Assembly (NCBI RefSeq): GCF_029263155.1
Contig: NZ_JAJCYB010000017.1
Location: 1 to 48,108, forward strand
Source of the DNA: Pseudonocardia sp.
GTDB lineage: Bacteria; Actinomycetota; Actinomycetes; Mycobacteriales; Pseudonocardiaceae
Reading direction: 5' to 3'
Length of the DNA: 48,108 nt
Each line of letters begins with the position of its first letter. Position 1 is the stretch's first letter. The position numbers and the translations under genes were made by a program. The notes under the pieces were generated by a model. It did not search any database. It was not told where the DNA came from and worked only from the letters and a program-made list of their open reading frames with translations. Below are positions 2,307 through 22,811 of the stretch, one piece after another.

Positions 2307-2310
2307 TGTG

Positions 2311-2772: not shown

Positions 2773-3590
2773 GGGGTGCTCCTTTCCCGGTCTCGCGAGG
2801 TGGTGGTCTTGGCGTGTTTGCGCTGGCTGGAGCGCAGCCGGAAGGACTGCGTGCCGGTCTCGACGATGTGGGCCTCGAAGGTGATCCGGTCCACGATCGC
2901 GGCGCAGAGCCGCGGGTCGGTGAAGGTGCGGGCCCATTCGGAGAACGCGGAGTTCGACGCGACCGCGACCGAGGCGCGTTCCTCGCGTTCGGTGAACACC
3001 TGGAACAGCAACTCGGCGCCGCGCCGGTCGAGTTCCAGGTAGCCCAGTTCATCGAGGCAGAGCAGGTCGACGCGGCCGTAGCGGGCGATGGTGCGGGAGA
3101 GGTGTTTATCGTCGGCGGCCTCGACGAGTTCGTTGACCAGCGCGGCGGCGGTGACGTAGCGGACCCGGTAACCGGCCTCGGCCGCGGCGATTCCCAGCCC
3201 GATCAGCAGGTGAGACTTCCCGGTGCCGGAGTCCCCGATCAGGCACAGGGGTTGCCCGGCGCGGATCCAGGCCCCTTTGGCCAGGGTGTGGATCAGTCCG
3301 GGGTCGATGAGCGGGTTCGCGGTGAAGTCGAAGTCGTCGATCCGTTTCGGGCGCGGAAACCCGGCGTCGCGGATCAGCCGGGTGCGGCGGCGGTCGGTGC
3401 GCTCGTCGCATTCCATCGCGAGTAGCTCGACCAGGAATCCCTTGTAGCCGGCCTTCTGCCGGGCGGCGGCCTCGGCGACCCTGCCGTGGTGCTCGCGGAT
3501 GGTGGGCAGCCGCAGGATCCGGCAGGCCTGCTCGATCGCGGCGTCCGCGGCGGCGTCGGTCAACTCGTCACGACCAGCTGCTCGGGTCAT
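2769..3590 (-). CDS. istB: IS21 helper ATPase IstB
   Basis: A 273-residue AAA+ ATPase of the IstB/DnaC-like family. Walker A is GDSGTGKS at residues 119-126 and Walker B is LLCLDELGY with the acidic pair near 180-181. In IS21 elements IstB assembles on target DNA as an ATP-dependent complex and directs the IstA transposase to it. The start overlaps the istA stop by four bases, and the stop overlaps the start of the third ORF. Length is normal for the family and no disruption is visible. Confidence 0.92.
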   Translation of the reverse strand: MTRAAGRDELTDAAADAAIEQACRILRLPTIREHHGRVAEAAARQKAGYKGFLVELLAMECDERTDRRRTRLIRDAGFPRPKRIDDFDFTANPLIDPGLIHTLAKGAWIRAGQPLCLIGDSGTGKSHLLIGLGIAAAEAGYRVRYVTAAALVNELVEAADDKHLSRTIARYGRVDLLCLDELGYLELDRRGAELLFQVFTEREERASVAVASNSAFSEWARTFTDPRLCAAIVDRITFEAHIVETGTQSFRLRSSQRKHAKTTTSRDRERSTP

Positions 3591-5275
3591 GAACTCCTCG
3601 TCTCCCCAGCAGCGGTGTCCGCGCCGTCCGGTCCGCCGGTGGGCGGGCTTGATCGGCGGCGGGTCAGCAGCTGGTCGTAGTCGCGCACCGACGGCGCCGG
3701 CCGGGCATCGGTAGGAAGCGCGGCCTGGCGGCGCGCGCCCAGGGTCACCACCGCCGCCCGCGACCGCTGCAGCCCAGATCGCTGCGGCGCCGTCGGCTCG
3801 TTCATCGCCGAATCGGCGGCGGCGTGCTTGCGGGCCTCGATGGCCACCACGTCGGCGGCCACGCTGCCCGCGCCCAGCGCGGCCGCGATCCCGGCCAGCA
3901 CGGCGTCGCGGCGCAGCCGGCGGTGCAACAGCAGCACCTCGATCAACGCCCGGGTCCCGGCCGCGTCACCGTGCTTGTTGCGGGCTGCGGCCCAGAACGC
4001 CTCATGGGTCGCGGTGAACGTCCCCGCCTTGCGGGCCTGGGCCAGTGCGGTCGATCCCGGCAGCGCACCCGGCTTGCCCAGCAGGATCTCCAGGTAGTGG
4101 TCCAGCTGCAGGACCGCCCCGCCGCGACAGAGCACCCGCGGGTGGGTCGCGACCCGCGCCGGGCCGTCGAACACCACCAGCTCCGAGGCCGAGAGCGCGA
4201 CCCGCACCCTCGATCCGATCAACCGGGCCGGCACCGAGTAACGCACCTGGCGGACCATGATCTGGGCGTAGCGATCCACCCGGGCGGTCAACGACAGCGC
4301 GGTGTCGAACCGCTCGGCAGGCAACGCCCGCAGCAGCGGTGCCTCGGCGGTGAACGCCGTCCCCACCGACACCGCCCGGCCGTCGATGTGCCGGTCGTCC
4401 TCGACGAGGTCCGCGGCGACCAGGCGGGCGTTGAGCTCGGCCAACGTGTCGACCTCGGGGACCGGGACCAGATGGGCGCGGCGGAACCGGCCCCCGTCGC
4501 CCTCGACCCCGCCCTTCTCGTGCGCGCCTTCCTGGCCGGGCAGGCAGTAGAAGGCGTCGAACCCGTAGTGCGCCCGGAACGCCAGCCAGCGCCCGGACTC
4601 GGCGCGGTTGCGCCCGAACAACACCCGGTGCACCGCCGAGCGCAGGTTGTCGTAGCGGATCTTGTCGAACGGGATGCCGTCCAACACCTCGAACGCGGCC
4701 ACGTGTCCTTCCAGGAACGCCTCCTGCCCCTGCGAGGCGAACACCCGGTGCACCGCTTTGCCCGAGTGCGACAGGCGCAGCGTGAACAGGAAACACTTCG
4801 TCATCTCCCCGGCCAGGCGCACCCACAGATCAGCGAAGTCGACCTCGGCCTCCGCCCCGGGCGGGTGACACTGCGGCACGAACCCGGCCACCACCCCCGC
4901 CCGCGCGCCCTCGCGCGCCGCCGCCTGCGCGGCCAGCTGCGGCCGGCGCCGGTGCACGTACTTCGCGACATAGGAGTACGACACCGCAGCGTCGTGCTCA
5001 GTGCGCAGCCGCTCATGGATCCGCTTCGCGGTGTGGCGCTGCTTGCGCGGCGCCGCCCGGTCCGCCACCAACATGGCGTCGATCAACTCTCGGACCGCAT
5101 CGAGGACCGGCACCGGCCGCGGCGAGGTCCGCCGCGGCGGCGGGATCGGCGAGCCGACCGCCTCGCGCACCGTGCGCCGGTGCACCCCGTACTTGTCGGC
5201 CAGCGCCCGGATCGACATCTGGTTGCGCTGGGAATCGAACCGGATCGCCGCGTACAGCTCCACTCTCGACCCCAT
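3587..5275 (-). CDS. istA: IS21-family transposase IstA
   Basis: A 562-residue DDE transposase, starting MGSRVELYAAIRF. An N-terminal HTH (MSIRALADKYGVHRRTVREA) is followed by the integrase core, with catalytic acids in EVDFADLWV, in IRYDNLRSAV, and in the glutamate of KGGVEGDGGRF. The C-terminal part is basic and DNA-binding in character. An in-frame ATG exists four codons upstream (5287), and the open frame continues further upstream into the IS end; I chose 5275 because family similarity begins there. The gene overlaps istB by four bases. Together with IstB it should be capable of transposition. Confidence 0.88.
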   Translation of the reverse strand: MGSRVELYAAIRFDSQRNQMSIRALADKYGVHRRTVREAVGSPIPPPRRTSPRPVPVLDAVRELIDAMLVADRAAPRKQRHTAKRIHERLRTEHDAAVSYSYVAKYVHRRRPQLAAQAAAREGARAGVVAGFVPQCHPPGAEAEVDFADLWVRLAGEMTKCFLFTLRLSHSGKAVHRVFASQGQEAFLEGHVAAFEVLDGIPFDKIRYDNLRSAVHRVLFGRNRAESGRWLAFRAHYGFDAFYCLPGQEGAHEKGGVEGDGGRFRRAHLVPVPEVDTLAELNARLVAADLVEDDRHIDGRAVSVGTAFTAEAPLLRALPAERFDTALSLTARVDRYAQIMVRQVRYSVPARLIGSRVRVALSASELVVFDGPARVATHPRVLCRGGAVLQLDHYLEILLGKPGALPGSTALAQARKAGTFTATHEAFWAAARNKHGDAAGTRALIEVLLLHRRLRRDAVLAGIAAALGAGSVAADVVAIEARKHAAADSAMNEPTAPQRSGLQRSRAAVVTLGARRQAALPTDARPAPSVRDYDQLLTRRRSSPPTGGPDGADTAAGETRSS

Positions 5276-7995: not shown

Positions 7996-8460
7996 TCAGT
8001 CACCGAGACGCCGCCGAACACCGCGGTGGCGTTGAGGGACGAGTACGGGCGAACTGAGGCCGCGGCGTACGGCCCGGTCGTCATCGAGCGGCCGGACCCC
8101 GCCGGACCTCAGGACCCGGATGTCGATCAGTACCGCGATCAGCCAGGTCACCACGGTCGACCCGACGAACGACGCGAGCAGGGTGTCCCCGATCGCCCAG
8201 GTCTCCCCGACGAACACCGCGGAGACCCCGAGCAGCGCGGCGGCGACCCCGGTGACCGTGGCGACCCGCCCCCAGGTTCCACGGAAGCCGTCGGGACCGA
8301 TCACGCTCACCGCCACCAGCGCGATCACGAGACCGACCGCGGCCATCCCCGTCACGTCCTCGACGAACGGCATGCTCCCGTTGACGAGGTACCCGACGTA
8401 GGGGACGACGACCGCGGCGACCAGCAGTGTGGCGATCCCGTCGTGCAACCTGATCTGCAT
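7996..8460 (-). CDS. Four-helix membrane protein, unknown function
   Basis: A 154-residue protein starting MQIRLHDGIATLLVAAVVVP; the ATG at 8460 has GGAGG eight bases upstream. There are four hydrophobic helices (about residues 8-28, 38-55, 65-83 and 92-112), then a basic cytoplasmic tail after DIRVLRSGGVRPLDDD. The tail may be extended beyond its natural end. Upstream lie two DosR-type palindromes 22 bp apart, at the same distance from the start codon as those before the DUF1918 gene. It is therefore a likely member of the local hypoxia/dormancy regulon. No enzymatic motif is seen. Confidence 0.65.
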   Translation of the reverse strand: MQIRLHDGIATLLVAAVVVPYVGYLVNGSMPFVEDVTGMAAVGLVIALVAVSVIGPDGFRGTWGRVATVTGVAAALLGVSAVFVGETWAIGDTLLASFVGSTVVTWLIAVLIDIRVLRSGGVRPLDDDRAVRRGLSSPVLVPQRHRGVRRRLGD

Positions 8461-8510: not shown

Positions 8511-8546
8511 GGGCCGTCCGTCCTCGCGCTTCGGGCCGATGGACCG
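8511..8546 (-). promoter_or_regulatory. Tandem DosR-type boxes upstream of the four-helix membrane protein
   Basis: GGGCCGTCCGTCCT (8511-8524) and GGGCCGATGGACCG (8533-8546) each match 7 of 8 fixed positions of GGGNCN-NN-NGNCCC. The box starts are 22 bp apart, and the boxes lie 51-64 and 73-86 bases upstream of the ATG at 8460. A perfect palindrome GGACCGGCCGGTCC overlaps the second box (8541-8554). Confidence 0.5.
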
Positions 8547-8620
8547 GCCGGTCCGGCCGACCGGGGCCGCGTCGGTGGACCGGGACCGGCGCAGCGGATC
8601 ACCCCCGGATCAGCCCCGGT

Positions 8621-9637
8621 TCAGCCCGCCCGGGCCGCGGTCGCCGCGACCCGGTGTGCCCGACCAGGGGCGTGTTCCCACATGGTCGCGGCCGCGGTCA
8701 GCGAGTCCGCGAGTGAGCCGTCGGTCCGGATCAGCCGTGCCTGCGGCCACGGGTCGGCCGTCCTGCTCATCATCCGGGCGAGGGGCGCGGTCGCATCCGA
8801 CGCGGTCGGCCCCCTGGTGGCGATCCGTCGCTCCGCGATCCCCTCGTCGGCGTGGCACTGCAGCGCCACCAGGTCGTTGCTCGTGCGGTCGGCCAGGTCG
8901 GCGGCGGCGGCGCGGTGCCGGGCGTCGGTCCAGGAGGCGTCGAGGACGACCGACTCCCCCCGGGAGAGCAGCATCCCGGCGCGGCGCAGCAGCTCGTCGT
9001 AGGTCGCCGCCGTGTGCGCCGCGGTGTAGAGGCCCGACCGGAACGGGGCCCCGGCCGCCGCGGCGGGGTCGATCCCGGCCAGCTCCTTGCGGACCCGGTC
9101 GCTGGAGAGCAGGACGGCGCCGAAGCGGTCGGCCAGCGCGCCGCCGACCGTCGTCTTGCCGGTGCCGGGGAGACCGCCCACCAGGGCCAGCCGCACGGCA
9201 CCGTGCTCGAGATGGCGCAGGGCGAGCGCGGCGTGGTCCGCGGCGTCGGCTGCCGCCCCCGGATCGCCCTGGCCGTGCCGCAGGTAGGCGACCTTGGCGC
9301 GGACGACCGCGCGGTAGGCGATGTAGTGGTGGCGCAGCGCCACCGGTGCCGGGTCGCGGGAGAACTCGACGTAGGCGTCGAGGAACGAGGCACCCAGCTC
9401 GGGCCGGCCGAGGCGTTCGAGGTCCATGGCGAGGAACGCGGCGTCGTCGAGGCCGTCGACGTGGCGCAGGTGATCGTCGAACTCCAGGCAGTCCAGCGCG
9501 CGGGGCCCGTCGTCGAGGCAGAACACGTCCGCGGCGGTCAGGTCGCCGTGGCCGTCGACGATGCGGCCCCGGGCGATCCGGTCGGCGAACTCGGCATCAG
9601 CGAGGTGCTGCGGCCGGCCGGACCGAGGGTGCCCAGG
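8621..9637 (-). pseudogene. Truncated APH/P-loop protein (Rv2004c-like), N-terminal ~160 residues missing
   Basis: The readable product contains the end of an aminoglycoside-phosphotransferase-like domain: RIVDGHGDLTAADVF, whose HGD is the catalytic-loop type motif, then ALDCLEFDD. A kinase-like P-loop domain follows, with GGLPGTGKTT. M. tuberculosis Rv2004c, a DosR-regulon protein of about 500 residues, has the same architecture. Here homology begins just after the stop codon of the upstream USP gene and in the same frame, and the first ~160 residues are gone. The only plausible start is a GTG at 9526, after the APH loop. A deletion that also removed the end of the USP explains this. An active product is unlikely, although the P-loop half is intact. 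Confidence 0.7.
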
Positions 9638-10369
9638 TCACGACTTCACCAGGCTCGCGGCGTGCAGCAACTGGTCGCCCGCACCGCCGTAGGCCACGCG
9701 GAACTCGACCGGCACGTCGGGGTACCGGGCCGCCCACGGCCGCAGGCCGGCTTCCGGTGCTGTCCCGCCCGCAGGCTCCCCGGCCGACCTGTGCCGGACG
9801 TGGACCACCACCAGCGGGGTCCCGTGCCGCTCGGCGTCCGCGAACGCGACGTCCACCGCGTCGGAGTCGACGGCCAGGTCCTCGACGCCGATGACGACGG
9901 GCCCGCGGTGGGTGTCGAGCCGGTGATCGCTGCGCACGACGGTCACCGGGCAGCGGGCCTTCGCGGTGAGCGCGGGCGCGATCGAGGACACCAGCGCGTC
10001 CCCGGTGTGGCCGCCGAGCATGCCCACGACGAGCAGTTCGGCCGAGCGCGAGGCGGACACGAGCGCGTCGGCCGGGCCGCGGTCGGATCGTTCGGTGCGC
10101 AATGCGATGCCGGGCTCTCGCCGGCGCGCGACGGTGACGGCCCTGCCGAGGATCGCCGCGACCCGCCTGTGCCCGGCGGCTCGGTCGGCGCTCGCGTACG
10201 GGGCGGCGTGCACGATCAGCAGAGGGACCCCGCGGACGCGGGCTTCGGTCGCCGCCCAGGCGACCGCCCGCAACGCCATCGCCGTGCCGTCGGTCCCGAC
10301 CACGACCCCCGGGGGCCTGGTGGTGTCCCGGCCGTCCGCCGCCGGGTCGTGCGCGCCTGGGTCCTTCAC
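9638..10369 (-). CDS. Universal stress protein, tandem-domain, C-terminally truncated
   Basis: 243 residues from a GTG at 10369 with GAGAGGA upstream. Domain 1 runs from VVVGTDGTAMALRAVAWA to LLVVGMLGGHTGDALVSS and PVTVVRS. Domain 2 begins PVVIGVEDLAVDSDAVDVA but stops at QLLHAASLVKS, exactly where the VVVGSRG ATP-binding loop and the final strand should follow. Tandem USPs of this type are about 290-300 residues, so 45-50 residues are missing. The stop is followed, in the same frame, by the truncated APH/P-loop gene, which marks a deletion junction near 9640. Four DosR-type boxes lie upstream. Domain 1 may still fold. Confidence 0.75.
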   Translation of the reverse strand: MKDPGAHDPAADGRDTTRPPGVVVGTDGTAMALRAVAWAATEARVRGVPLLIVHAAPYASADRAAGHRRVAAILGRAVTVARRREPGIALRTERSDRGPADALVSASRSAELLVVGMLGGHTGDALVSSIAPALTAKARCPVTVVRSDHRLDTHRGPVVIGVEDLAVDSDAVDVAFADAERHGTPLVVVHVRHRSAGEPAGGTAPEAGLRPWAARYPDVPVEFRVAYGGAGDQLLHAASLVKS

Positions 10370-10427
10370 GGCAGATCCTCTCCCTCGGTTCGTGTCCAGC
10401 GTCCCCGTTGTCCGTGCGCGCCCGGCA

Positions 10428-10463
10428 GGGCCGGGCGCCCTGACCGCCCGGGTCGCCCGGCCC
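10428..10463 (-). promoter_or_regulatory. Proximal tandem DosR-type boxes of the USP gene
   Basis: GGGCCGGGCGCCCT (10428-10441, 7/8 fixed positions) and GGGTCGCCCGGCCC (10450-10463, 8/8), 22 bp apart, lie 59-72 and 81-94 bases upstream of the GTG at 10369. Confidence 0.55.
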
Positions 10464-10482
10464 GCCGCCCCGGCCCGGTTCG

Positions 10483-10518
10483 GGGCCCGGTGGCCGCCGC
10501 GCAGGGGCCGTGCGTCCC
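10483..10518 (-). promoter_or_regulatory. Distal tandem DosR-type boxes of the USP gene
   Basis: GGGCCCGGTGGCCG (10483-10496, 7/8) and GGGCCGTGCGTCCC (10505-10518, 8/8) are again 22 bp apart. The pair starts 55 bp from the proximal pair (five 11-bp steps), so all four boxes could lie on one DNA face. Confidence 0.5.
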
Positions 10519-10554
10519 TACTGCGGCCCCCGCCGGGACCGGCGCTCGGCCGGC

Positions 10555-11520
10555 TCAGCGGGGCATCCGCTCGATCGAGTCGTCGAGGGCGCGCCGGGGC
10601 GTCGGCGGGAGCGGGGGGCCGGCCGGCGCCCACCCCACCCGGAGCACCAGCTGCGGGCTGAGGGTTCCGCCCAGGACCTCCTCGCGCAGAGTGGCGCGCG
10701 TGCTCGCGACCTCGAACGGCTGGCTCAGCGGGCAGCTGGCCAGGCCGAGCTGCGTGGCGTGCAGCAGCACCGCGCTCAGCGCCTCACCCGCACGCAGCTG
10801 GGAGACCGTGTCGTCGGAGGCGGTGCCGAGCGCCCCGTCCGTGCCCTCCGCCGGCTGCGTGACGAGTCCCTCGCTGAACCTCCGCGCGATGCTGTCACCG
10901 GACGAGGGGTCGACGAGCAGGTTCGCGGCCGGCACGCCGTCGTCACCGGTGCGACCGCCGCTCCAGAGCGCGGTCTCGGTGTGGTATCCGGTGCGGGACT
11001 CCTGCTCCCGCGCCGCAGCCTGGATCGCCGCCACCGTCTGTGCGCGCGCGGCCGCCCCGGTGATCGGGCGCAGGACCGCGCCGTACTCGGCGGCGCGGTC
11101 GATCAGCTCCGCGACGAACGCCGTGGGCACCTCCCAGTCCAGGTACCGCCTGCGGTCGGTCCTCCGGTGCACGATGGCGCCTGCGACGCCCGGATCGGCC
11201 TCGGCGCCGACGCCGGGGTGCAGTTCGACCGCGGCGAAGTGGTCACCGACGGCGGGGTTCGGCAGCCGGCGCACCGTGCAGCGCAGGCCGGTCGCCGCGA
11301 GCGCGACGGTGAGGTGGTGCAGCGCCGCACCGCAGCTCACGGCGAGGTCCCGGCCGTCGGCGTCGGTCACCGGCAGCCACCGGCGCAGGTCCGCGAAAAG
11401 GTGGATGCTGCGCAGGCCCAGCAGCCACCGCCACGGCTGGCTGTTGTGGATCGACGGGGCCCTCGTGGCGAGCTCCAGCGCGCTGCGCACCGAACGCTGG
11501 TCCACCCGGTCGACGATCAC
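10555..11520 (-). CDS. Acg-family nitroreductase-like protein 1
   Basis: 321 residues, starting at a GTG that overlaps the stop of the upstream CBS gene (GTGA). The N-terminal motif APSIHNSQPWRW is the FMN/phosphate-binding signature of the Acg family (M. tuberculosis Rv2032, Rv3127, Rv3131). Later conserved blocks are HRRTDRR, GEALSAVLLHATQLGLA and PQLVLRVGWAP. Acg proteins are two-fold nitroreductase-like folds that bind flavin; the mycobacterial proteins belong to the DosR regulon and their substrate is unknown. It is coupled to the CBS protein, with the promoter upstream of that gene. Confidence 0.85.
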   Translation of the reverse strand: MIVDRVDQRSVRSALELATRAPSIHNSQPWRWLLGLRSIHLFADLRRWLPVTDADGRDLAVSCGAALHHLTVALAATGLRCTVRRLPNPAVGDHFAAVELHPGVGAEADPGVAGAIVHRRTDRRRYLDWEVPTAFVAELIDRAAEYGAVLRPITGAAARAQTVAAIQAAAREQESRTGYHTETALWSGGRTGDDGVPAANLLVDPSSGDSIARRFSEGLVTQPAEGTDGALGTASDDTVSQLRAGEALSAVLLHATQLGLASCPLSQPFEVASTRATLREEVLGGTLSPQLVLRVGWAPAGPPLPPTPRRALDDSIERMPR

Positions 11521-11969
11521 CGGGTACCCCGCCGCGTCGCGTCGGCGGCGAGGGACCGGATCAGGTCGGTCGCGGTGAGGATGCCGAGCAGCCGCTCGCC
11601 GTCGGTGACGAGCACGACGTCGGTGCCCTCGGTGTGCATCCGTCGCGCCGCGTCGGACCGGCGGGCGGTGGGGCCGAGCGCGGGGACGGGCCGGCACAGC
11701 TCGCCGACACGCTGCGCCGGCACACCGGGTTCCGGCCGCCGGGCCGCGAGCAGCCGGGCCACGTCGGTCTCCAGGACGACGCCCAGGCAGCGGGTGCCGT
11801 CCAGCACCGGGAGCTGCCGGACCCGGCGTGCGGCCATCAGGCGCAGCGCCACGGCCAGCTCGGCGTCCGGCACGATGGCGACGATCCGCCGTGTCATCAC
11901 CGCGGTGAGGGGAGGGTCGTCGTCGACGGCCTCCGGTGGCGCGGCGAGGCGGTAGGGCTGGCTGGGCAT
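11517..11969 (-). CDS. Tandem CBS-domain protein (Hrp1/Rv2626c-like)
   Basis: 150 residues; ATG at 11969 preceded by GAGGAG. Two CBS modules are visible: the first from PPLTAVMTRRIVAIVPDAEL with RQLPVLDG and CLGVVLETDVARLL, the second from RVGELCRPVPALGPTA with GILTATDLIRSL. CBS pairs bind adenine nucleotides. M. tuberculosis Hrp1, of similar size, is a DosR-regulon member, and the downstream partner here is an Acg nitroreductase, which supports the analogy. Two DosR-type boxes lie 62-75 and 84-97 bases upstream. Confidence 0.82.
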   Translation of the reverse strand: MPSQPYRLAAPPEAVDDDPPLTAVMTRRIVAIVPDAELAVALRLMAARRVRQLPVLDGTRCLGVVLETDVARLLAARRPEPGVPAQRVGELCRPVPALGPTARRSDAARRMHTEGTDVVLVTDGERLLGILTATDLIRSLAADATRRGTR

Positions 11970-12030
11970 CTCGTACTCCTCGTCGGACGGGTGATGCCTC
12001 GACCCTCCCCGGAGACCCACGGGCCCGGCA

Positions 12031-12066
12031 GCGGCGCACGGCCCGCGATGCCGGGCCGATGGTCCT
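12031..12066. promoter_or_regulatory. Tandem DosR-type boxes centred between divergent genes
   Basis: GCGGCGCACGGCCC (12031-12044) and GGGCCGATGGTCCT (12053-12066) each match 7/8 fixed positions and are 22 bp apart. They lie 62-75 and 84-97 bases upstream of both the CBS start (11969) and the HTH start (12128), an exactly symmetric placement. Confidence 0.5.
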
Positions 12067-12080
12067 GATACCCGAACGGC

Positions 12081-12126
12081 GGTCAACTTCAGTTGACCCG
12101 AGGGCGTCGGTCAACTACGGTTGACC
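12081..12126 (+). promoter_or_regulatory. Two tandem GGTCAAC…GTTGACC palindromes before the HTH gene
   Basis: GGTCAACTTCAGTTGACC (12081-12098) is a perfect inverted repeat with a 2-nt centre. GGTCAACTACGGTTGACC (12109-12126) is a second copy ending one base before the GTG start. The centres are 28 bp apart. The position suggests an operator for autoregulation by the encoded HTH protein. Confidence 0.6.
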
Positions 12127-12127
12127 C

Positions 12128-12340
12128 GTGCCCGCCCCGGTTCCCGGTCCCGACGATCCGGAGCAGGCGTTGGCGGCGGTCGTGTCCCTGCGGCGACTGG
12201 CCGATCGGCTCGAGGCGGCCTCGGTCCAGGCGGCCGTCGACCAGGGCTGGAACTGGGTGCAGATCGCCGAGGTCCTCGGCGTCACCAAGCAGGCGGTGCA
12301 CAAGAAGTACGCCCGCCGGGTCCGGCGGCCCGAGGACTGA
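12128..12340 (+). CDS. Small helix-turn-helix protein
   Basis: 70 residues from a GTG immediately downstream of two operator-like palindromes. After a helix (AVVSLRRLADRLEAASVQAA) comes a clear HTH, WNWVQIAEVLGVTKQAVHKK, with a basic tail. Proteins of this size and sequence commonly precede Clp N-terminal-domain genes in actinobacteria, and here such a gene starts 10 bp downstream. It probably binds the palindromes and represses its own operon. The lack of leader between the second palindrome and the start codon fits a leaderless transcript or an occlusion mechanism; this is inference. Confidence 0.75.
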   Translation: MPAPVPGPDDPEQALAAVVSLRRLADRLEAASVQAAVDQGWNWVQIAEVLGVTKQAVHKKYARRVRRPED

Positions 12341-12350
12341 GGGAGACCCG

Positions 12351-12884
12351 GTGTTGCGCGGACTGCGTCGTGCGAGAGCCGACATCGCCACCATGAACCG
12401 GCTGTTCCCCGCCGCCGAGCAGATCGCCCGGGCGGACGGGCTGGAACGCCCCGGCGCCGAGCACCTGCTCATGGCGGCCCTGGAGCTCGACGACCCGACC
12501 GCGTCCGAGGCGCTGCGCGAATGCGGGGTCACCGCCGGTGGGCTGCACGAAGCCGTCCGCGCCCAGCACGCGGCGGCGCTGGAGGTCGTCGGGATCGCCG
12601 TCGACGACGACGCGATCGACGCCGCGCTGCCCCCGTTCGCCCCGTCCCGCGGCCCGTACCGCTCCGAGGGATCGGCGCAGCGGGCCTTCCGCCGCGCGGT
12701 GGCCCTGGCGAAGCACGGTCGTTCGCCGTTGCTGAGCGCGCACGTCCTGCTGGCCGTGATCGAGAGCCGACGCGGCACGGTGGCCCGTGCCCTCGCCGGT
12801 CTGGGTGTCGACCACGACCGGCTGGCCGATGTGGCACGGCGTGAGCTTGACCGCCATGCGCGGGAGCGGTCGGCCGGGTCCTGA
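12351..12884 (+). CDS. Clp N-terminal (ClpR repeat) domain protein
   Basis: 177 residues from a GTG with GGGAGA upstream. It contains two Clp-N repeats: the first around FPAAEQIARADGLERPGAEH with LLMAALELDD, the second around GSAQRAFRRAVALAKHGRSP with LSAHVLLAVIESRRGTVARA. No AAA+ module follows, so this is a stand-alone substrate-recognition-like domain, as found in many actinobacteria. It is co-transcribed with the HTH regulator. A role as an adaptor or decoy for Clp proteolysis under stress is plausible but not shown by sequence. Confidence 0.8.
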   Translation: MLRGLRRARADIATMNRLFPAAEQIARADGLERPGAEHLLMAALELDDPTASEALRECGVTAGGLHEAVRAQHAAALEVVGIAVDDDAIDAALPPFAPSRGPYRSEGSAQRAFRRAVALAKHGRSPLLSAHVLLAVIESRRGTVARALAGLGVDHDRLADVARRELDRHARERSAGS

Positions 12885-12919
12885 CCACTCCGGCCCGGAT
12901 CGCTCGCGCCCACCGGCGA

Positions 12920-13018
12920 TCAGGAGGTCGGGACGAGCCGACGGGAGCCGAGGCGCACCTCGGGCAGCCCGGGGGTCTGCTCGGGACGGTGGGTGACGAT
13001 CAGCGCGGTGCGGACCCC
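12920..13018 (-). pseudogene. C-terminal remnant of an ABC-transporter ATPase
   Basis: About 33 residues (RTALIVTHRPEQTPGLPEVR, ending LVPTS) match the very end of an ABC ATPase: the H-loop VTHRP followed by a short tail, similar in style to CydC/CydD C-termini. The segment upstream is not ABC-like and the nitroreductase gene follows. It appears to be a leftover from a deletion or insertion. Short, so uncertain. Confidence 0.4.
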
Positions 13019-13047
13019 CGCGCGCCCGCCGGTCGGTCGTCCGCCGC

Positions 13048-15958
<2,911 letters not shown>

Positions 15959-16064
15959 TCGCGGGACCCGCGGCCGAGCCGGCCGTCCCGCCGCTGGTGA
16001 CCGGCCGCCCCTGGATCCGCGTGAGCAGCTGAGCACCGGCCCGGCCGCCGCGCCCGCCGCTCGG

Positions 16065-17123
16065 TCAGGGGCGTGCCTCGAGCACCATGTTGACCGGCGT
16101 CTCGGCCGCGCGGCGGAACCGGGAGAAGCCCGCCTCGCCCATGACCTCGTTCAGCCGGGCCTCCCCGGCCTGCGCGCCGAGGCCGAGGCCGACGTCCTGG
16201 GAGAGCGAGTTGGGGGTGCAGAGGAAGATCGACGCACCGTAGTAGAGCCGCCCGACCGGGTTCAGGTTGTCCTGGACCTGGTCACCGGCGGCCGGCTCGA
16301 CCAGCATCACGGTGCCCTCGGCGGCGAGGGCCTGCCGGGCCTGTCGCGCCGCCCCGACCGGGTCGCCCAGGTCGTGCAGTGCGTCGAAGAAGCACACCAG
16401 GTCGTAGGGCCCACCGGGTAGGCCCGCGGCGTCGGCCACCTCGAAGGTGGCCCGGTCGGCGATCCCGGCGTCCGCGGCCGCCGTGCGGGCGGCCCCGATC
16501 GAGGGCTCGTGGTAGTCGACCCCGGTGAACGTCGAGTTCGGGTACGCGCGGGCCATCAGGATCGTCGAGGCCCCGTGTCCGCAGCCGACGTCGGCGACCC
16601 GGGCGCCGTCGACGAGCTTCTGCTCGACCCCGTCCAGGGCGGGGATCCACTCGGACACCAGGTGCGCCCGGTAGCCGGGTCGGAAGAAGGCCTCGGTCCC
16701 GGAGAACAGGCGCGGATGGTGCTCGTGCCAGCCCACCCCCTCCCCGGTGCCGAACGCCTCCTCGATGCGGTCGACACTGGACCAGATGGCGGCGAGCATG
16801 TCGAACCCGCCCGCGAGATACACCGGGCTGTCCGGGTCGGCCAGGATCATCGCGCGCTCGTCGGGCAGGGTGTAGCTGCCCGCCAGCGGGTCGTGGTCGA
16901 CGTACCCGCCCGCGGCCTGGTTGTTCAGCCACTCGCGCACGTAGCGTTCCCGCGTGCCGGTGGCCTGCGCGAGCTGCTCGGACGTCATCGGGCCCGACCC
17001 GGCCATCGCCTGGTACAGCCCGGTCTTGTGGCCGACCAGCGCGGCGGCCATCGAGGTGGCCGCGCCGAGGTCGCCCACGGTGGCGAACAGCGACTCCTCC
17101 AACTTGGCCTGATCGACGGTCAT
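16065..17123 (-). CDS. SAM-dependent methyltransferase with N-terminal winged helix
   Basis: 352 residues. The N-terminal ~90 residues form a winged-helix/dimerisation domain (KTGLYQAMAGSGPMTSEQLA, then TRERYVREWLNNQAAGGYVD). A class I methyltransferase domain follows, with motif I VADVGCGHGAS, an acidic residue ending strand 2 in FTGVDYHEPSI, and DLVCFFDALHDLGDP. The overall layout resembles M. tuberculosis Rv2258c and related proteins; substrate unknown. It sits between devS and a LuxR-type regulator and diverges from the latter. I found no convincing DosR box in its 175-bp upstream region. Confidence 0.82.
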   Translation of the reverse strand: MTVDQAKLEESLFATVGDLGAATSMAAALVGHKTGLYQAMAGSGPMTSEQLAQATGTRERYVREWLNNQAAGGYVDHDPLAGSYTLPDERAMILADPDSPVYLAGGFDMLAAIWSSVDRIEEAFGTGEGVGWHEHHPRLFSGTEAFFRPGYRAHLVSEWIPALDGVEQKLVDGARVADVGCGHGASTILMARAYPNSTFTGVDYHEPSIGAARTAAADAGIADRATFEVADAAGLPGGPYDLVCFFDALHDLGDPVGAARQARQALAAEGTVMLVEPAAGDQVQDNLNPVGRLYYGASIFLCTPNSLSQDVGLGLGAQAGEARLNEVMGEAGFSRFRRAAETPVNMVLEARP

Positions 17124-17298
17124 GACTTCTCCGTTCTCGACGGGATGTGGACGCCGTCGATGGTGCGGCGATCAGGGCGCGCGGTCATGAGCAGCGGGGT
17201 GCTCATCCGCGGACCGGTCGATGCTCAGGTCGTCGACGCCGGGATCGGAGCTCGCGTAGGGCTTTCCCGGTGCAGCCCACCGGGCCTACCGTGCGGAC

Positions 17299-19956
17299 AT
17301 GGCGCGTTCCTGGCCGCTGGTGGGCCGGGGGGACGAGCTCCGCGACGTCGCCGCGATGATGGGGCGCCCGGGCACCCCCGGTCTGGTCGTCCGCGGACCG
17401 CCCGGGATCGGCAAGACGAGGCTGGTCACCGAGGTACTGGCCCGTGCCCCGGCCGCTCGCTTCCGCGTACACCGGGCGACGGGCACCCGCGCCGCGGCCA
17501 CGTTGCCGCTGGCGGCGGTGAGCCACCTGCTTCCCGAGGCCGGGCCGCATCCGGCGGACTTCGACCTGCTGCGGCGCACCTCGCGCGCCCTGGTCGCGAA
17601 CGCCGGACCGCGTCGGGTCGTGGTGGCCGTCGACGACGCCCACCTCCTCGACGACGCATCGGCGGCCCTCCTGCAGCACCTCGTGACGGCGTCGCCGGTG
17701 TTCGTGGTGGCCACCGTCCGGGACGGCGAACCGAGCCCGGACGCCATCCGATGGTGCAGCCGCGACGGCCCGACCGAGCAGTTGGACCTCGGCCCGCTCT
17801 CCGACGAGGAGGTGCACGAAGCGCTGCGCTCCGCGCTCGGCGCGCCGGTCAGCGGCTCGCTCGTGCACCGGTTGAGCGCGCTGTCGGCAGGCAATCCGCT
17901 GCTCCTCACCGAGCTGGTGACCGCCGCGCTGGAGGAGGGACGGCTGACCCGGCGGTCCGGACTGTGGCGGCTCACCGGCGACTGGGCGTGCGGCCGTGCC
18001 CTTCCCGAACTGGTGCGGGACAGGCTCGACCGGTTGAGCCCGCAGGCGTACGCGGCCGCGCAGCTGGTGGCGCTCAGCGAACCGATCGGTGCCGCCGAGG
18101 TGGAAGCGATGCTTTCCGCCGAGGCCCTCGAGGCACTGGAGAGCGAGGACCTGCTCGTGGCCGCCCCCAGCGGGCGGCGCCGGCAGGTACGACTGGTCCA
18201 CCCGCTCTACACCGAGGCGCTCTGCGCCACGATTACCCCGCTGCGGGCTCGTGCCGCCTACCGGGCGTTGGCCGACGCGCTGGGGCGGACCGGGGCCCGC
18301 CGTCGCGAGGACGCGCTCCGGCTGGCGGTGTACCGCACGGAGGCCGGTGAGCCCACCGACCCGGAGCTGCTGCTGCGGGCGGCCCAGCAGGACGAGGCCC
18401 TCCTCGACCGGGGCGTCGCCGAGCGGCTGGCCCGCACGGCCGAGGAGTCCGGTGGAGGGCTGCGCGCCCGGTTCGTCCGCGTCGAGGCGCTGCGCTGGAT
18501 GGGTCGTTCCGAGGACGCCCATGCGCTGCTCACCGACGCGCCGATCGCGGCTGCGCCCGCCGCGCTGCGCGCCCGGGCCGCGACCCTCCGCGCGAGCATC
18601 CTCCTCGTCGGTCTGAACCGCGTCGCCGAGGCCGGGCAGGTGCTGGCCGACGCCCGTGCCGACCTCACCCGGGACCCGGACGCGGACCCGGACGTCGTCC
18701 GGGCCGAGTGCGCCGGGTTCGACGTCCTGGAGGCCGAGTTCCGGTTCAACCTCGGCCGGATCTCCGACTCCGTCGCCGCCGCCGACCGCGCGCTCTGCGC
18801 GGAGCACGCCCGGGCCTCGACCCGGGTGAGCGCGGCGGCCGTCGCCACCGTCGCGATGACCTGGGCCGCGCAGCCCGAGCGGGCCCGGACCGTCGCGACC
18901 GGCGCCCGGGAGTGGTCCCGGGCGTGCCGACCGGGCGGGCCCGGGGTCGCGGTGGAGAACCTGCTCGCGCTCACCCACAGCCTGGCCCACCTCTACGCGG
19001 GACGTCTCGACGCCGCCCAGCGGCTCGCCGATCTCGGCTACCGGCGTGCGCTGGACCTGGGGTCCGAGGCGCTGCAGGGCCAGTCGGCACTGGCGCTGGG
19101 GCACGTGGCCCTGCTGCGCGGCCGGGTCGCCACGGCCCGGCGGTGGCTGCGGGAGGCGAGCGCGCTGATCGAGCGGCACGCGCCCGCGATGGGCCGGTTC
19201 GGCACCGCGTACGCGCTCAGCTCGGCCGGCGAGGCGGCCGCGCTCGCGGGAGACCACACCGAGGCGGACTCGGCCGGTCCCCGAGCCGGCGATGTCCTCC
19301 CGCCCGGTGCCCTGCTGTGCAACCGGGACCGACCCCGGGTGTGGGCCGCGGCGGCCGAGGGAAGGACAGCGACGGCAGTGCGGCTCGCACTGTCCGGCGC
19401 CGACGATCTCGCCGCCGCGGGAGCGACCCTGTTCGAGGCCATGGCCTGTCACGACGTCGTCCGGCTCGGCGCCCCCGACCGGGTCGCGAGCCGGCTCGAC
19501 CGGCTGGCGGCGGGCTCCGACAGCGAACTCGTCCGGCTCTGGGCCGCACACGCCGAGGCGCTGGTCGCCGACGACGCCGCCGCGCTCGACCGGATCACCG
19601 GGGAGTTCGCCCGCACGGGGACCGAGCTGCTCGCCGCGGAGTCGGCCGCCCAGGCCGCCGACGCCCACCGGCGCGCCGGGGCCCCTGCCCGGGCGGCGGT
19701 GTCCGCGCACCGCTCCCGGGAGCTGGCCGGGCGGTGCGAGGGCGCCCGCACCCCGGGGCTCGCACTGGCCGGGGACCCCACGCCGCTCACCCCGCGCGAA
19801 CGTGAGGTCGCAGCCCTCGCCACACGGGGCTTGCCCGACCGCGACATCGCGGCCCAGATCGGCGTGTCCGAGCGCACGATCCACAACCACCTGCACCGCG
19901 CGTACGGCAAGCTGGGCATCCGCAGCCGCCGCCAGCTCCGGTCGATCCTGCCCTGA
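17299..19956 (+). CDS. Large ATP-binding LuxR-family (LAL-type) transcriptional regulator
   Basis: 885 residues. An N-terminal STAND/AAA ATPase domain has Walker A GPPGIGKTR near residue 34 and Walker B VVVAVDDAHLL near 107. A long Ala/Arg-rich helical middle with TPR-like repeats follows. The C-terminal LuxR HTH (LTPREREVAALATRGLPDRD, then SERTIHNHLHRAYGKLGIRS) ends the protein. LAL regulators couple ligand and ATP binding to transcription activation. The ligand and targets cannot be read from sequence, but the neighbourhood suggests a stress or redox role. Start at the ATG at 17299, next to a GGGCCTACCGT promoter-like region. Confidence 0.85.
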   Translation: MARSWPLVGRGDELRDVAAMMGRPGTPGLVVRGPPGIGKTRLVTEVLARAPAARFRVHRATGTRAAATLPLAAVSHLLPEAGPHPADFDLLRRTSRALVANAGPRRVVVAVDDAHLLDDASAALLQHLVTASPVFVVATVRDGEPSPDAIRWCSRDGPTEQLDLGPLSDEEVHEALRSALGAPVSGSLVHRLSALSAGNPLLLTELVTAALEEGRLTRRSGLWRLTGDWACGRALPELVRDRLDRLSPQAYAAAQLVALSEPIGAAEVEAMLSAEALEALESEDLLVAAPSGRRRQVRLVHPLYTEALCATITPLRARAAYRALADALGRTGARRREDALRLAVYRTEAGEPTDPELLLRAAQQDEALLDRGVAERLARTAEESGGGLRARFVRVEALRWMGRSEDAHALLTDAPIAAAPAALRARAATLRASILLVGLNRVAEAGQVLADARADLTRDPDADPDVVRAECAGFDVLEAEFRFNLGRISDSVAAADRALCAEHARASTRVSAAAVATVAMTWAAQPERARTVATGAREWSRACRPGGPGVAVENLLALTHSLAHLYAGRLDAAQRLADLGYRRALDLGSEALQGQSALALGHVALLRGRVATARRWLREASALIERHAPAMGRFGTAYALSSAGEAAALAGDHTEADSAGPRAGDVLPPGALLCNRDRPRVWAAAAEGRTATAVRLALSGADDLAAAGATLFEAMACHDVVRLGAPDRVASRLDRLAAGSDSELVRLWAAHAEALVADDAAALDRITGEFARTGTELLAAESAAQAADAHRRAGAPARAAVSAHRSRELAGRCEGARTPGLALAGDPTPLTPREREVAALATRGLPDRDIAAQIGVSERTIHNHLHRAYGKLGIRSRRQLRSILP

Positions 19957-20129
19957 GATCCCGATCCACATGGGCCCGCCCGGGGCGACCGCGCACGACG
20001 CCGCCTCGCCGATCACGCCGTGCGACACTCGCGCACCGAACCGGGTTTCGCTCGGCGTCGGCGGCCCGCGAAGCCCGGTTCAGCGCGCGAACCCAACCGG
20101 CTGTCGGTGCTCACCGCCCGGCTCTCGGC

Positions 20130-20165
20130 GGGACTTCCGGCCCCCGAACGGGGGCCGTGCGCCGC
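20130..20165 (+). promoter_or_regulatory. Tandem DosR-type boxes upstream of the DUF1918 gene
   Basis: GGGACTTCCGGCCC (20130-20143) matches all fixed positions and closely resembles the M. tuberculosis DosR consensus GGGACTTNNGGCCC. GGGCCGTGCGCCGC (20152-20165, 7/8) lies 22 bp away. They are 73-86 and 51-64 bases upstream of the ATG at 20216. The rest of the 259-bp gap between the LuxR-type regulator and this gene holds no recognisable ORF. Confidence 0.7.
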
Positions 20166-20215
20166 TCGCGGCGTGGCCCGCGGACGGGCAGCGTAGTGCC
20201 CGGAGGTGACGTGCG

Positions 20216-20473
20216 ATGACTGCACCGAACAAGACCGGCGCACATGTCGGAGACTGGCTGGTGGTGCCCGTTCCACCGGTGGAGCGGGGCTGGCGCTGGG
20301 GCCGGATCGTCGAGGAGCTCGCCGGACCGGGTCCCGCCCGGTTCCGGGTGCGCTGGGTCGGCAACGACCGTGACTCGCTGGTGGTGCCACCCCCGGGCTA
20401 CCGCATCGAGAGCGCCGCCCGCTGGCCGCAGGCGCCGTCGAGTGCCATCGGACTGTGGCCGCATCCCGCCTGA
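20216..20473 (+). CDS. DUF1918 protein (Rv0569/Rv2302-like)
   Basis: 85 residues: GAHVGDWLVVPVPPVERGWR, then GRIVEELAGPGPARFRVRWV and DSLVVPPPGYRIES. This is the small SH3-like beta-barrel DUF1918 fold. M. tuberculosis Rv0569 of this family is a DosR-regulon member. The best DosR-type box in the window lies 73 bp upstream, so membership of the same regulon is likely here. The STAS gene begins 88 bp downstream on the same strand. Molecular function unknown; a nucleic-acid-binding role has been suspected for the family. Confidence 0.85.
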   Translation: MTAPNKTGAHVGDWLVVPVPPVERGWRWGRIVEELAGPGPARFRVRWVGNDRDSLVVPPPGYRIESAARWPQAPSSAIGLWPHPA

Positions 20474-20561
20474 TCTCTCGGCTGTCGAGTAACGTCGCCA
20501 CCGAAACAGCCGACATCGGATCGTGCCGGCCGACGGTGGCCGAAGGACGAGAGGCTCGTGG

Positions 20562-20942
20562 ATGTCCGGACAGATCTCGCGGGTGCCGCTGCAGGTCAGC
20601 ACCACGTTGCGCAGCGGCGGTGAGGCGACGATGGCCGTGTCGGGCACCGTCGAGCGGGAGTCGGTCGCCCGCCTGGACACCCTGGTGACCGCGCTCTGCG
20701 CGGCGGGGGCGACCCGTGTCGTCGTCGACCTCTCGCGGGTCTCGGCCTGCGACCGGTCGCTGCTCGCCGTGCTCGAGCGGACCCGGAGCCAGGTGGAGGC
20801 GATGGGCGGATGGTTGGTGCTGGACGGGTCTCCCGCCACGATGAGTGCCTATGACGAGCTGCCGCTCGACGCGGTCTTCCGCATCTACCGGGACGCCTGC
20901 GGCTACCGGGGCGGCGCACCGCTCGCCGCGGGTGCGCGCTGA
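20562..20942 (+). CDS. STAS-domain protein (anti-sigma-factor-antagonist type)
   Basis: 126 residues from an ATG with GAGAGG upstream. A single STAS fold is visible: VSGTVERESVARLDTLVTAL, RVVVDLSRVSACDRSLLAVL, WLVLDGSPATMSAYDEL. In SpoIIAA-type antagonists a serine near the centre is phosphorylated by a partner kinase; here the segment VSACDRSLL holds candidate serines. No anti-sigma factor or kinase is adjacent. It may be co-transcribed with the DUF1918 gene from the DosR-box promoter. Confidence 0.78.
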   Translation: MSGQISRVPLQVSTTLRSGGEATMAVSGTVERESVARLDTLVTALCAAGATRVVVDLSRVSACDRSLLAVLERTRSQVEAMGGWLVLDGSPATMSAYDELPLDAVFRIYRDACGYRGGAPLAAGAR

Positions 20943-20963
20943 GCGGCGGTGCCGCTCAGCGCG

Positions 20964-21611
20964 TCAGCGAGGGCCGTGGCGCAGCTCGGCGGCGTAGACG
21001 GCGGCCTCGGTGCGCCGGGAGAAGCCGAGCTTGTGCAGCAGCGAGGAGACGTAGTTCTTGACGGTCTTCTCGGCGAGGTACATCTCGGCGCCGATCTGGC
21101 GGTTGGTGAGACCCTCGGCGATCAGTTCGAGGATGCGCCGCTCCTGCGGGCTGAGCGTGTCGTAGCGGGGATCGCTGGGCGCGTCGCCCGTGCGCAGGCG
21201 TTCGAGGACCGCGGCGGTGGCACGCGGATCCAGCAGCGATCCGCCGGCTGCGACCGTGCGCACCGCGCCGACGAGATCCATGCCGGTGACCTGCTTGAGC
21301 AGGTATCCCGAGGCTCCGGCCATGATCGCGCCGAAGAGCGCCTCGTCGTCGGAGTAGGACGTGAGCATGAGGCACGCGGGTGCCGGGGTGACCGCCGAGC
21401 GCATGTCCCGGCAGACCGTCACGCCGTCGCCGTCGGGGAGGCGGACGTCGAGGATCGCGACGTCCGGGCGCAGGGCGGGGATGCGGGCGATGGCCTGGGC
21501 GGCGGTGCCGGCCTCGCCGACGACGGTGATGTCGTCCTCGGACTCCAGCAGCTGCGCGATGCCGCGCCGGACGATCTCGTGGTCGTCCAGGAGGAATACG
21601 GAGATGGACAC
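20964..21611 (-). CDS. devR: DevR/DosR-type NarL-family response regulator
   Basis: 215 residues. The receiver domain has the acidic pair D9/D10, phospho-acceptor Asp55 (VAILDVRLPD), and the conserved lysine in GYLLKQVTG. The C-terminal LuxR HTH reads LSPQERRILELIAEGLTNRQ followed by EKTVKNYVSSLLHKLG, nearly identical to the DNA-recognition region of mycobacterial DosR, whose Lys-x2-Lys-Asn residues contact GGG half-sites. That supports reading the local GGGNC…GNCCC boxes as its targets. It converges on the STAS gene and is not in an operon with devS. A perfect box lies 80-93 bases upstream, suggesting autoregulation. Confidence 0.93.
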   Translation of the reverse strand: MSISVFLLDDHEIVRRGIAQLLESEDDITVVGEAGTAAQAIARIPALRPDVAILDVRLPDGDGVTVCRDMRSAVTPAPACLMLTSYSDDEALFGAIMAGASGYLLKQVTGMDLVGAVRTVAAGGSLLDPRATAAVLERLRTGDAPSDPRYDTLSPQERRILELIAEGLTNRQIGAEMYLAEKTVKNYVSSLLHKLGFSRRTEAAVYAAELRHGPR

Positions 21612-21690
21612 GGTCGGGCTCCTCGTCGTCGGTATGTCGACGGTATCGGCGGACGGCGGGCCCCGGTGCCGCCGTTGGACCTGTCCGGCG

Positions 21691-21704
21691 GGGCCGAACG
21701 GCCC
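21691..21704 (-). promoter_or_regulatory. DosR-type box upstream of devR
   Basis: GGGCCGAACGGCCC is a perfect 6-2-6 palindrome matching all fixed positions, 80-93 bases upstream of devR and 11 bases beyond the stop of nitroreductase 3. A 2-nt centre makes a terminator hairpin unlikely. No partner 22 bp away is visible. Confidence 0.6.
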
Positions 21705-21714
21705 GGCTCCGGGG

Positions 21715-22695
21715 TCAGGGCCGGATCAGTACCGACTCGAGTGCGCGGCGTGGGGTCGCCTCGAGGCGCCCCGCCGCGGGGTCGGGGTACCCGACCCGGA
21801 TCACCAGCTGCGGATGGTCCGGCGACCGCAGGACGTGCGCGGCCAGGCGGGTCCGCACGGCCGCGACCTCCTGGGACTGGCTCAGCGGGGTCGTCGCGAG
21901 CCCCTCGCCGGTCGCCGTGAGCAGGGCGGCGCTGGCCGCCTCCCCGGCGAGCAGGTGGTCGATCACGCCGTCACCGGCGGTCGTGAGGACGAGCAGGACC
22001 GACCCGTCGTCGGTCGCCCAGCGGCGCCGGGTGTCGGCGAGCCGGCCGCGGGGGAACCGCCGCAGGTCCGGGTCCCCGCTGCCGGCGGTCCGCGCGCCGG
22101 CCGGGACGCCGTCGCGGGCGGCCGCCCAGCGGTGGCTCCAGATCGCCAGCTCGGCGGCATAGCCCGGGGCGAACCGCTGCCGGGCACCGGCGTCGGCCAG
22201 CAGCTCGTCGAGCCGGTGCCGGGCCCCGTCGTCGACGACCGGCACCAGCAGCGCACCACTACCCGCCGCGGCGGTGACGAGCCGGTCGAGGACCCGGGGA
22301 GGAACCGGTTCGGCTCCGAGGGGCCGCCGGTCGGTACGCCGCTCCTCGATCGCGCGGCTCAGCCTGGCGAGCGCCGACACGGGAGCGCCGCTCCGCACCG
22401 TCACGGTGGCCAGGTGCCAACGGTCCTCCACCGTGGGCAGCCGGTCGACCCGTGCCGACAGCCCCGCCGCCGCGAGGGCCACGCGAAGGTGGTGCAGCGC
22501 CGAACCGCAGCTCAGCACGAGATCGCGGCGGTCGGGGTCGGTGGCCACCAGGTGCCGCGCCGGGTCGGCGTGCAGCTCGATCGCGCCGTCGGCGAGCCGC
22601 CACCGCCACGGCTGTGTGTTGTGCACCGACGGTGCCCGCAGGGCCCGCTCCACCGCTGCCGCCAGCACTCCGGCGGGCACGCGCTCCTCGTCCAT
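21715..22695 (-). CDS. Acg-family nitroreductase-like protein 3
   Basis: 326 residues, starting MDEERVPAGVLAAAVERALR. Signature RAPSVHNTQPWRWRL, then HADPARHLVATDPDRRDLVL, ERRTDRRPL, GEAASAALLTATGEGLATTP and PQLVIRVGYPDP. Asn-Thr-Gln replaces the Asn-Ser-Gln of the other two paralogues. It lies upstream of devR on the same strand with 103 bp between, so read-through into devR is possible. Predicted flavin-binding protein of the dormancy regulon; the reaction is unknown. Confidence 0.85.
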   Translation of the reverse strand: MDEERVPAGVLAAAVERALRAPSVHNTQPWRWRLADGAIELHADPARHLVATDPDRRDLVLSCGSALHHLRVALAAAGLSARVDRLPTVEDRWHLATVTVRSGAPVSALARLSRAIEERRTDRRPLGAEPVPPRVLDRLVTAAAGSGALLVPVVDDGARHRLDELLADAGARQRFAPGYAAELAIWSHRWAAARDGVPAGARTAGSGDPDLRRFPRGRLADTRRRWATDDGSVLLVLTTAGDGVIDHLLAGEAASAALLTATGEGLATTPLSQSQEVAAVRTRLAAHVLRSPDHPQLVIRVGYPDPAAGRLEATPRRALESVLIRP

Positions 22696-22775
22696 ACCCG
22701 CACCCTTCGCCGCCCGGACCGGGCCCGCCAGAGGCCCGACGGCACCGGTTCCGCTGACGAACCGCGAGGCGGGGC

Positions 22776-22811
22776 GGGCCGTCGGTCACGACGTCGAGGG
22801 CCGATCGGACG
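22776..22811 (-). promoter_or_regulatory. Candidate DosR-type boxes upstream of nitroreductase 3
   Basis: GGGCCGTCGGTCAC (22776-22789, 7/8) and GGGCCGATCGGACG (22798-22811, 6/8) are again 22 bp apart. They lie 81-94 and 103-116 bases upstream of the start. Weaker than the others; the remaining part of the 184-bp gap shows nothing else. Confidence 0.35.

What the first reader, a model, noticed from the sequence alone, without database searches (positions are those of the whole stretch)
8511..22811. Pairs of DosR-type palindromes set exactly 22 bp apart upstream of several transcription units
Boxes fitting GGGNCN-NN-NGNCCC occur in pairs whose starts are exactly 22 bp apart: 8511/8533, 10428/10450, 10483/10505, 12031/12053, 14139/14161, 20130/20152 and, more weakly, 22776/22798. 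Most lie 50-100 bases before a start codon. Four match all eight fixed positions (10450, 10505, 20130, and the single box before devR at 21691). In such GC-rich DNA a 7/8 match alone is common (roughly one per 200 bp by my estimate), so the constant spacing and position carry the evidence. A two-turn spacing would let two DevR dimers bind the same face. The DevR-like protein here keeps the DosR recognition residues. Seen directly: boxes and spacing. Inferred: DevR binding and cooperativity.
Basis: partly seen in the sequence, partly recalled or inferred. Interest (0 to 1): 0.78.

Follow-up and report, generated by a model that had tools for sequence, protein, structure and literature searches.

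The report
Paired DevR boxes, 22 bases apart
In this bacterium several genes of a predicted low-oxygen stress programme carry two palindromic DNA boxes exactly 22 letters apart, most of them at a set distance before a promoter-like motif, where two pairs of the regulator DevR would likely sit side by side and switch the gene on; this extends a known arrangement rather than revealing a new one.

Summary
With both boxes at 7/8 or better, the window has 6 pairs at 22 bp and at most 1 at any other spacing from 10 to 44; 0 of 1000 shuffles reach 6. All six are intergenic. In 40 island stretches of relatives, 53 intergenic pairs lie at 22 bp against a mean of 4.1 at 25-100 bp; coding DNA shows no peak. 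Eighty named devR loci and 20 class-wide stretches peak there too.

New here: perfect boxes, taken regardless of partner, lie 23/24 or 45/46 nt before an ANNNT -10-like motif far above chance, so boxes favour two registers one 22-bp step apart. The 'single' box before devR is the distal half of such a pair.

DevR keeps the DosR recognition helix; neighbouring genes are DosR-type. Best reading: two DevR dimers bind one DNA face and activate transcription. Adjacent strong and weak DevR boxes reaching -35 are known in M. tuberculosis, and 22-bp dimer spacing in BvgA. Binding is untested; about half of the perfect boxes fit neither register.

The parts
8511..8546 (-). Box pair 8511-8524 (proximal) and 8533-8546 (distal) before the gene at 7996-8460; no ANNNT in register (GAGGCC at 24 nt: A in place, T missing)
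7996..8460 (-). Predicted protein, 154 aa, no Pfam or NCBIfam match; relatives' copies also follow full elements (L050, L057)
8621..9526 (-). AAA_33 ATPase gene, next after the Usp gene on the same strand
9638..10369 (-). Universal stress protein (Usp) gene
10398..10403 (-). -10-like motif GACGCT, 24 nt after the proximal box
10428..10463 (-). Box pair of the Usp gene: proximal 10428-10441 (7/8), distal 10450-10463 (8/8)
10483..10518 (-). Second, upstream pair 10483/10505 (7/8, 8/8); 33 bp from the inner box of the first pair; no own -10 in register
10555..11520 (-). Acg-family FMN oxidoreductase (nitroreductase), overlaps the CBS gene by 4 bp: predicted operon
11517..11969 (-). Two-CBS-domain protein gene
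12002..12007 (-). -10-like motif GAGGGT, 23 nt after the proximal box
12031..12066 (-). Box pair 12031/12053 (7/8, 7/8) before the CBS-nitroreductase genes
13048..14052 (-). Acg-family FMN oxidoreductase (nitroreductase)
14110..14115 (-). -10-like motif AACAGT, 23 nt after the proximal box
14139..14174 (-). Box pair 14139/14161 (7/8, 7/8); in register with the nitroreductase, not with divergent DevS
14231..15958 (+). DevS/DosS-type GAF-GAF-HisKA_3 sensor kinase
20130..20165 (+). Box pair 20130 (distal, 8/8) / 20152 (proximal, 7/8)
20189..20194 (+). -10-like motif CAGCGT, 23 nt after the proximal box
20216..20473 (+). DUF1918 protein gene
20964..21611 (-). DevR/DosR-type response regulator
21640..21645 (-). 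-10-like motif TACCGT of devR, 23 nt after the weak proximal box
21669..21704 (-). Hidden devR pair: proximal 21669-21682 (5/8), distal 21691-21704 (8/8)
21715..22695 (-). Acg-family FMN oxidoreductase (nitroreductase)
22776..22811 (-). Weak pair 22776/22798 (7/8, 6/8) before the nitroreductase; no ANNNT in register (GAACCG at 24 nt)

Best explanation
The box pairs are promoter elements in which two boxes lie exactly 22 bp apart, five of the eight pairs here with the gene-proximal box 23 or 24 nt before an ANNNT -10-like motif, and on them two phosphorylated DevR dimers would likely bind one face of the DNA and recruit RNA polymerase. Shown: the boxes, the spacing, the distance to the -10-like motif, the gene content and the DevR sequence. 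Inferred: the proximal dimer is centred near -42.5 and touches the -35 region (class II activation), and the distal dimer near -64.5 helps it bind. At devR the strong box is the distal one and the proximal one is weak, so a dimer on the distal box would load the proximal one, giving cooperative autoactivation. The signal (low oxygen, NO or CO through a haem GAF domain of DevS) is inferred from homology alone.
For: Spacing peak in the window, 40 island stretches, 80 named devR loci and 20 class stretches, in intergenic and not coding DNA. Register.ANNNT at 23/24 nt on 54 of 173 (islands) and 40 of 108 (named) perfect-box sides, at 45/46 nt on 39 of 173 and 27 of 108, random shifts about 7 each. 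Gene content: Usp, three Acg-family oxidoreductases, CBS, DevS, DevR. DevR closest to DosR 3c3w with LAEKTVKNYVS identical; DevS GAF closest to DevS-type GAF structures, HPPMR stretch kept. Known in M. tuberculosis: cooperative binding to adjacent strong and weak sites, proximal site overlapping -35 (PMC3029386). Genes after full elements in islands resemble a window gene in 83 of 150 cases against 157 of 567 others.
Against: 83 of 173 and 43 of 108 perfect boxes fit neither register. Three of eight pairs here (8511, 10483, 22776) and the DevS side of 14139 lack ANNNT in register. Non-gene sides show small 23/24 or 45/46 peaks in places (islands 6 and 5 of 121 at 23/24; named 7 and 5 of 83 at 45/46), perhaps from miscalled genes. 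Genome-wide the d=22 to d=25 ratio is alike in genomes with and without Acg nitroreductases: 185:79 and 28:14. 21- and 23-bp pairs are also enriched (15 and 19). In M. tuberculosis ChIP-seq resolved site pairs 40 and 57 bp apart (PMC2812949), not 22. No binding or expression data for this organism.
Confidence: 0.88

Rival explanations
1. The pairs are operators of another NarL/LuxR-family regulator with a similar palindrome, not of DevR.
For: NarL-family regulators use related inverted repeats, and the window holds another LuxR-type regulator gene (17299-19956).
Against: The sequence is the OsdR consensus; the element lies before devR itself here, in 13 of 24 island and 10 of 20 class devR loci (no chance rate measured); the gene set is DosR-type.
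Confidence: 0.07
2. Chance or compositional artefact of a GC-rich genome.
For: 7/8 boxes are common (106 in the window), and most genome-wide pattern hits examined outside the window lie in ORFs.
Against: 0 of 1000 shuffles reach 6 pairs; no peak at 22 in coding DNA; peak repeated in independent loci; fixed -10 register.
Confidence: 0.02
3. The palindromes act in RNA or as dispersed palindromic repeats (tandem hairpins, REP-like elements), not as protein sites.
For: GGGCC-GGCCC palindromes could pair with themselves and come in tandem.
Against: They lie upstream of the -10-like motif, so they would not be transcribed from it; the unselected centre positions are A/T-enriched as in the published protein box (matrix). 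I did not fold them.
Confidence: 0.03

Closest known systems
DevR/DosR regulon promoters of Mycobacterium tuberculosis
   Same: Orthologous-looking regulator, same palindrome class, adjacent strong and weak sites, proximal site overlapping -35, cooperative binding (PMC3029386, introduction and passages; PMC7018068 and PMC4973870, passages).
   Different: Boxes here are GC-rich; exact 22-bp period and two registers are measured here and were not found stated in the held papers; ChIP-seq pairs there were 40 and 57 bp apart (PMC2812949, passages).
OsdR regulon of Streptomyces coelicolor
   Same: Consensus AGGGCCGATCGGCCCT; Usp and nitroreductase genes; sites about 50-100 bp before genes (PMC5069765, section 7).
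   Different: Published there as mostly single sites; pairing not described in the section read.
BvgA of Bordetella (NarL-family response regulator)
   Same: Dimers spaced 22 bp, two helical turns, on one face; strong distal site, weaker sites down to -35 (PMC7250471, abstract and passages).
   Different: Different organism group and recognition sequence, up to six dimers; what it works like, not the same family member.

Membership tests
DevR/DosR (OsdR) regulon | NarL-subfamily response regulator with the DosR DNA-contacting helix | tested here: met
   3c3w best solved match; LAEKTVKNYVS identical; Response_reg + GerE
DevR/DosR (OsdR) regulon | GGGNC-GNCCC palindromic boxes upstream of target genes | tested here: met
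   consensus from PMC5069765
DevR/DosR (OsdR) regulon | Two or more closely packed boxes, proximal one reaching the -35 region | tested here: met
   Pairs and ANNNT register by sequence; start sites not mapped, so the -35 position is inferred
DevR/DosR (OsdR) regulon | Target genes: Usp, Acg-type oxidoreductases, CBS proteins, devR itself | tested here: met
   devR element
DevR/DosR (OsdR) regulon | Haem GAF sensor kinase DevS/DosT | tested here: inconclusive
   GAF-GAF-HisKA_3 with HPPMR stretch; that this holds the haem histidine is recall, haem binding untested
DevR/DosR (OsdR) regulon | Phosphorylated regulator binds the boxes cooperatively; genes induced by hypoxia, NO or CO | not testable with these tools
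   needs footprinting and expression data
BvgA-type 22-bp dimer array | Site centres 22 bp apart, last one next to -35 | tested here: met
   Site spacing and register by sequence only; says it works like BvgA, not that it is BvgA

The most novel reading that the evidence does not exclude
Across the actinomycete class one rigid cassette, box - 8 bp - box - 23/24 bp - ANNNT, is the general DosR/DevR/OsdR activation unit: boxes that drive a promoter occupy only two registers, so a seemingly single box, devR's own included, is half of a pair with a degenerate partner. The cassette is mirror-symmetric, so one pair can fire both divergent genes, as ANNNT motifs in register on both sides in L047, L050 and L069 suggest.
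Probability: 0.5. Interest if true: 0.58.

Novelty: new member of a known kind. Interest (0 to 1): 0.42.

Why it matters
It would turn a loose, GC-rich palindrome that cannot be scanned for reliably into a position-specific element: with spacing and -10 register, 800 kb of islands give 266 placements (245 intergenic, overlapping registers counted) and 400 kb of control stretches 5. DosR-type regulons could then be read in uncultured actinomycetes, single-box predictions re-ranked, and the same-face cooperativity model tested with 5-bp insertions in harmless strains.

Tried and rejected
Rejected: chance; coding periodicity (no d=22 peak in coding DNA); another regulator, and RNA hairpins or repeats (see rivals; hairpins were not folded).

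Led nowhere or went against: presence of Acg nitroreductases does not change the genome-wide d=22 to d=25 ratio. A recurring coding sequence matches the pair pattern in several genomes (C29 and C106 here; G008, G012, G026, G054) and inflates genome counts. Presence or absence of devR among the 60 nearest relatives was never obtained. Nine literature searches and the passages opened showed no statement of a 22-bp period for DevR boxes; the one promoter paper I asked for was not held, so the number may well be in print.
Full report
What was checked.

The pairs. With both boxes at 7/8 or better there are 6 pairs at 22 bp and 0-1 at any other distance from 10 to 44. Shuffles give a mean of 0.61, and 0 of 1000 reach 6. 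All six pairs are intergenic. The seventh, 22776/22798, scores 7+6.

Own genome. The two-box pattern with up to 2 mismatches has 62 hits per strand, 6 of them in this window. The nine outside pairs that came with loci all lie inside called ORFs; the other 47 were not examined. Adding ANNNT at 23 nt and allowing 3 mismatches gave 31 forward and 29 reverse hits; the only one with a single mismatch is 20130 in the window. Of the 29 new loci, 11 are in the window, none overlapping a called ORF; of 18 outside, 16 overlap ORFs (one partly; L195 judged) and two, L194 and L212, do not. The 24-nt version could not be searched genome-wide.

Relatives. An Acg-type nitroreductase search hit 45 of 60 genomes. 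I took 40 stretches of about 20 kb from 29 of these genomes and 20 control stretches. Intergenic pairs at spacings 20-24: islands 4, 15, 53, 19, 3, mean 4.1 at 25-100; controls 1, 2, 3, 1, 0, mean 0.8. Coding: islands 4, 1, 4, 5, 4, mean 3.0; controls 1, 3, 2, 1, 2, mean 1.7. Eighty named devR loci (the best 80 of 573), 45 of mycobacteria by title (one MAG, L118, is titled Bifidobacterium but was counted with them on its 88% identity) and 35 of Nocardia, Rhodococcus, Amycolatopsis and others, gave 10 and 15 intergenic pairs at d=22 against means of 0.50 and 0.54, and 0 and 0 in coding DNA; in mycobacteria d=21 is nearly as common (7) and d=57 shows 4. Twenty devR stretches from other orders of the class gave 11 against 1.4, with d=16, 23 and 24 at 7, 6 and 6; coding 2 against 1.0. 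Across 60 whole genomes, pairs with at most 1 mismatch number 213 at d=22 and 93 at d=25; in G008, 12 of 17 lie in one 152-kb region. The ratio is alike in genomes with (185:79) and without (28:14) the nitroreductase, so this count alone does not tie pairs to the regulon.

The register. I turned each intergenic pair towards its gene. On 75 gene-facing sides .ANNNT starts 23 or 24 nt after the box on 18 and 24 occasions, against 0-2 at nearly all other offsets (one of 5); on 42 other sides 4 and 1. I then dropped the pair requirement and took all perfect intergenic boxes.ANNNT at 23/24 on 54 of 173 (islands) and 40 of 108 (named) sides, at 45/46 on 39 of 173 and 27 of 108; random shifts give about 7 each, at most 19. 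The second peak is the first plus 22. Non-gene sides show no 45/46 peak in islands but 6 and 5 of 121 at 23/24, and in the named set 7 and 5 of 83 at 45/46; controls show none, but hold only 4 gene-facing perfect boxes. In the class set the counts are 9 and 4, then 5, 3 and 8 at 44-46, of 47. ANNNT is the -10 core used for mycobacteria (PMC6448022, passages). If the hexamer spans -12 to -7, box centres lie at -42.5/-43.5 and -64.5/-65.5: this conversion is inference. 83 of 173 and 43 of 108 perfect boxes fit neither register.

Window promoters. Full elements: Usp (GACGCT, 24), CBS-nitroreductase (GAGGGT, 23), nitroreductase 13048 (AACAGT, 23), DUF1918 (CAGCGT, 23), devR (TACCGT, 23). Without: 8511, 10483, 22776 and the DevS side of 14139. 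devR's perfect box is distal; the proximal partner is 5/8. Among relatives' devR genes an element (one box >=7, the other >=4, ANNNT in register) is found in 13 of 24 islands, 10 of 20 class and 10 of 78 named loci (chance rate not measured); the low last figure fits devR lying inside an operon in mycobacteria (recall).

Genes and regulator. Genes directly after full elements in the islands resemble a window gene in 83 of 150 cases, other genes in 157 of 567; none of the 150 and 28 of the 567 resemble DevS. DevR. DevS.

Literature. DevR binds adjacent strong and weak sites cooperatively, and in the promoters studied the proximal site overlaps -35 (PMC3029386, introduction and passages). OsdR's consensus is the same palindrome (PMC5069765, passages and section 7). 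BvgA dimers sit 22 bp apart on one face (PMC7250471, abstract and passages). ChIP-seq in M. tuberculosis resolved sites 40 and 57 bp apart (PMC2812949, passages). So the kind is known; what I add is the exact period, the two registers and their spread.

Limits. Home-made gene calls, related genomes, islands picked by a regulon gene, overlapping placements counted, class devR loci overlapping the class stretches, no binding data.

Noticed in passing
window 14231-21611: devS and devR are convergent but about 5 kb apart, with a methyltransferase, a large LuxR-type ATPase regulator, DUF1918 and STAS genes between; in 11 of 17 island stretches holding both they are adjacent and on opposite strands, in 43 of 64 named loci adjacent on the same strand.
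   Followed up: partly
window 1164-5263: Transposase genes (ISL3-type, IS21 IstB, Mu-type C-terminal domain) lie just left of the regulon island.
   Followed up: no
L212:1501-1565 and L194:1501-1565: Two weak full elements (3 and 2 mismatches) of the own genome outside the window that overlap no called ORF; L212 lies just before a called gene.
   Followed up: no
L005:1303-1338, L007:252-287: The same coding sequence matches the pair pattern on contigs 29 and 106, and similar ones recur in other genomes: a decoy for pattern scans.
   Followed up: partly
L047:12293, L050:5076, L069:6208: One pair with an ANNNT motif in register on both sides, between divergent genes.
   Followed up: partly
window 10428-10518: Four boxes before the Usp gene at steps 22, 33 and 22 bp, all near whole helical turns.
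   Followed up: no
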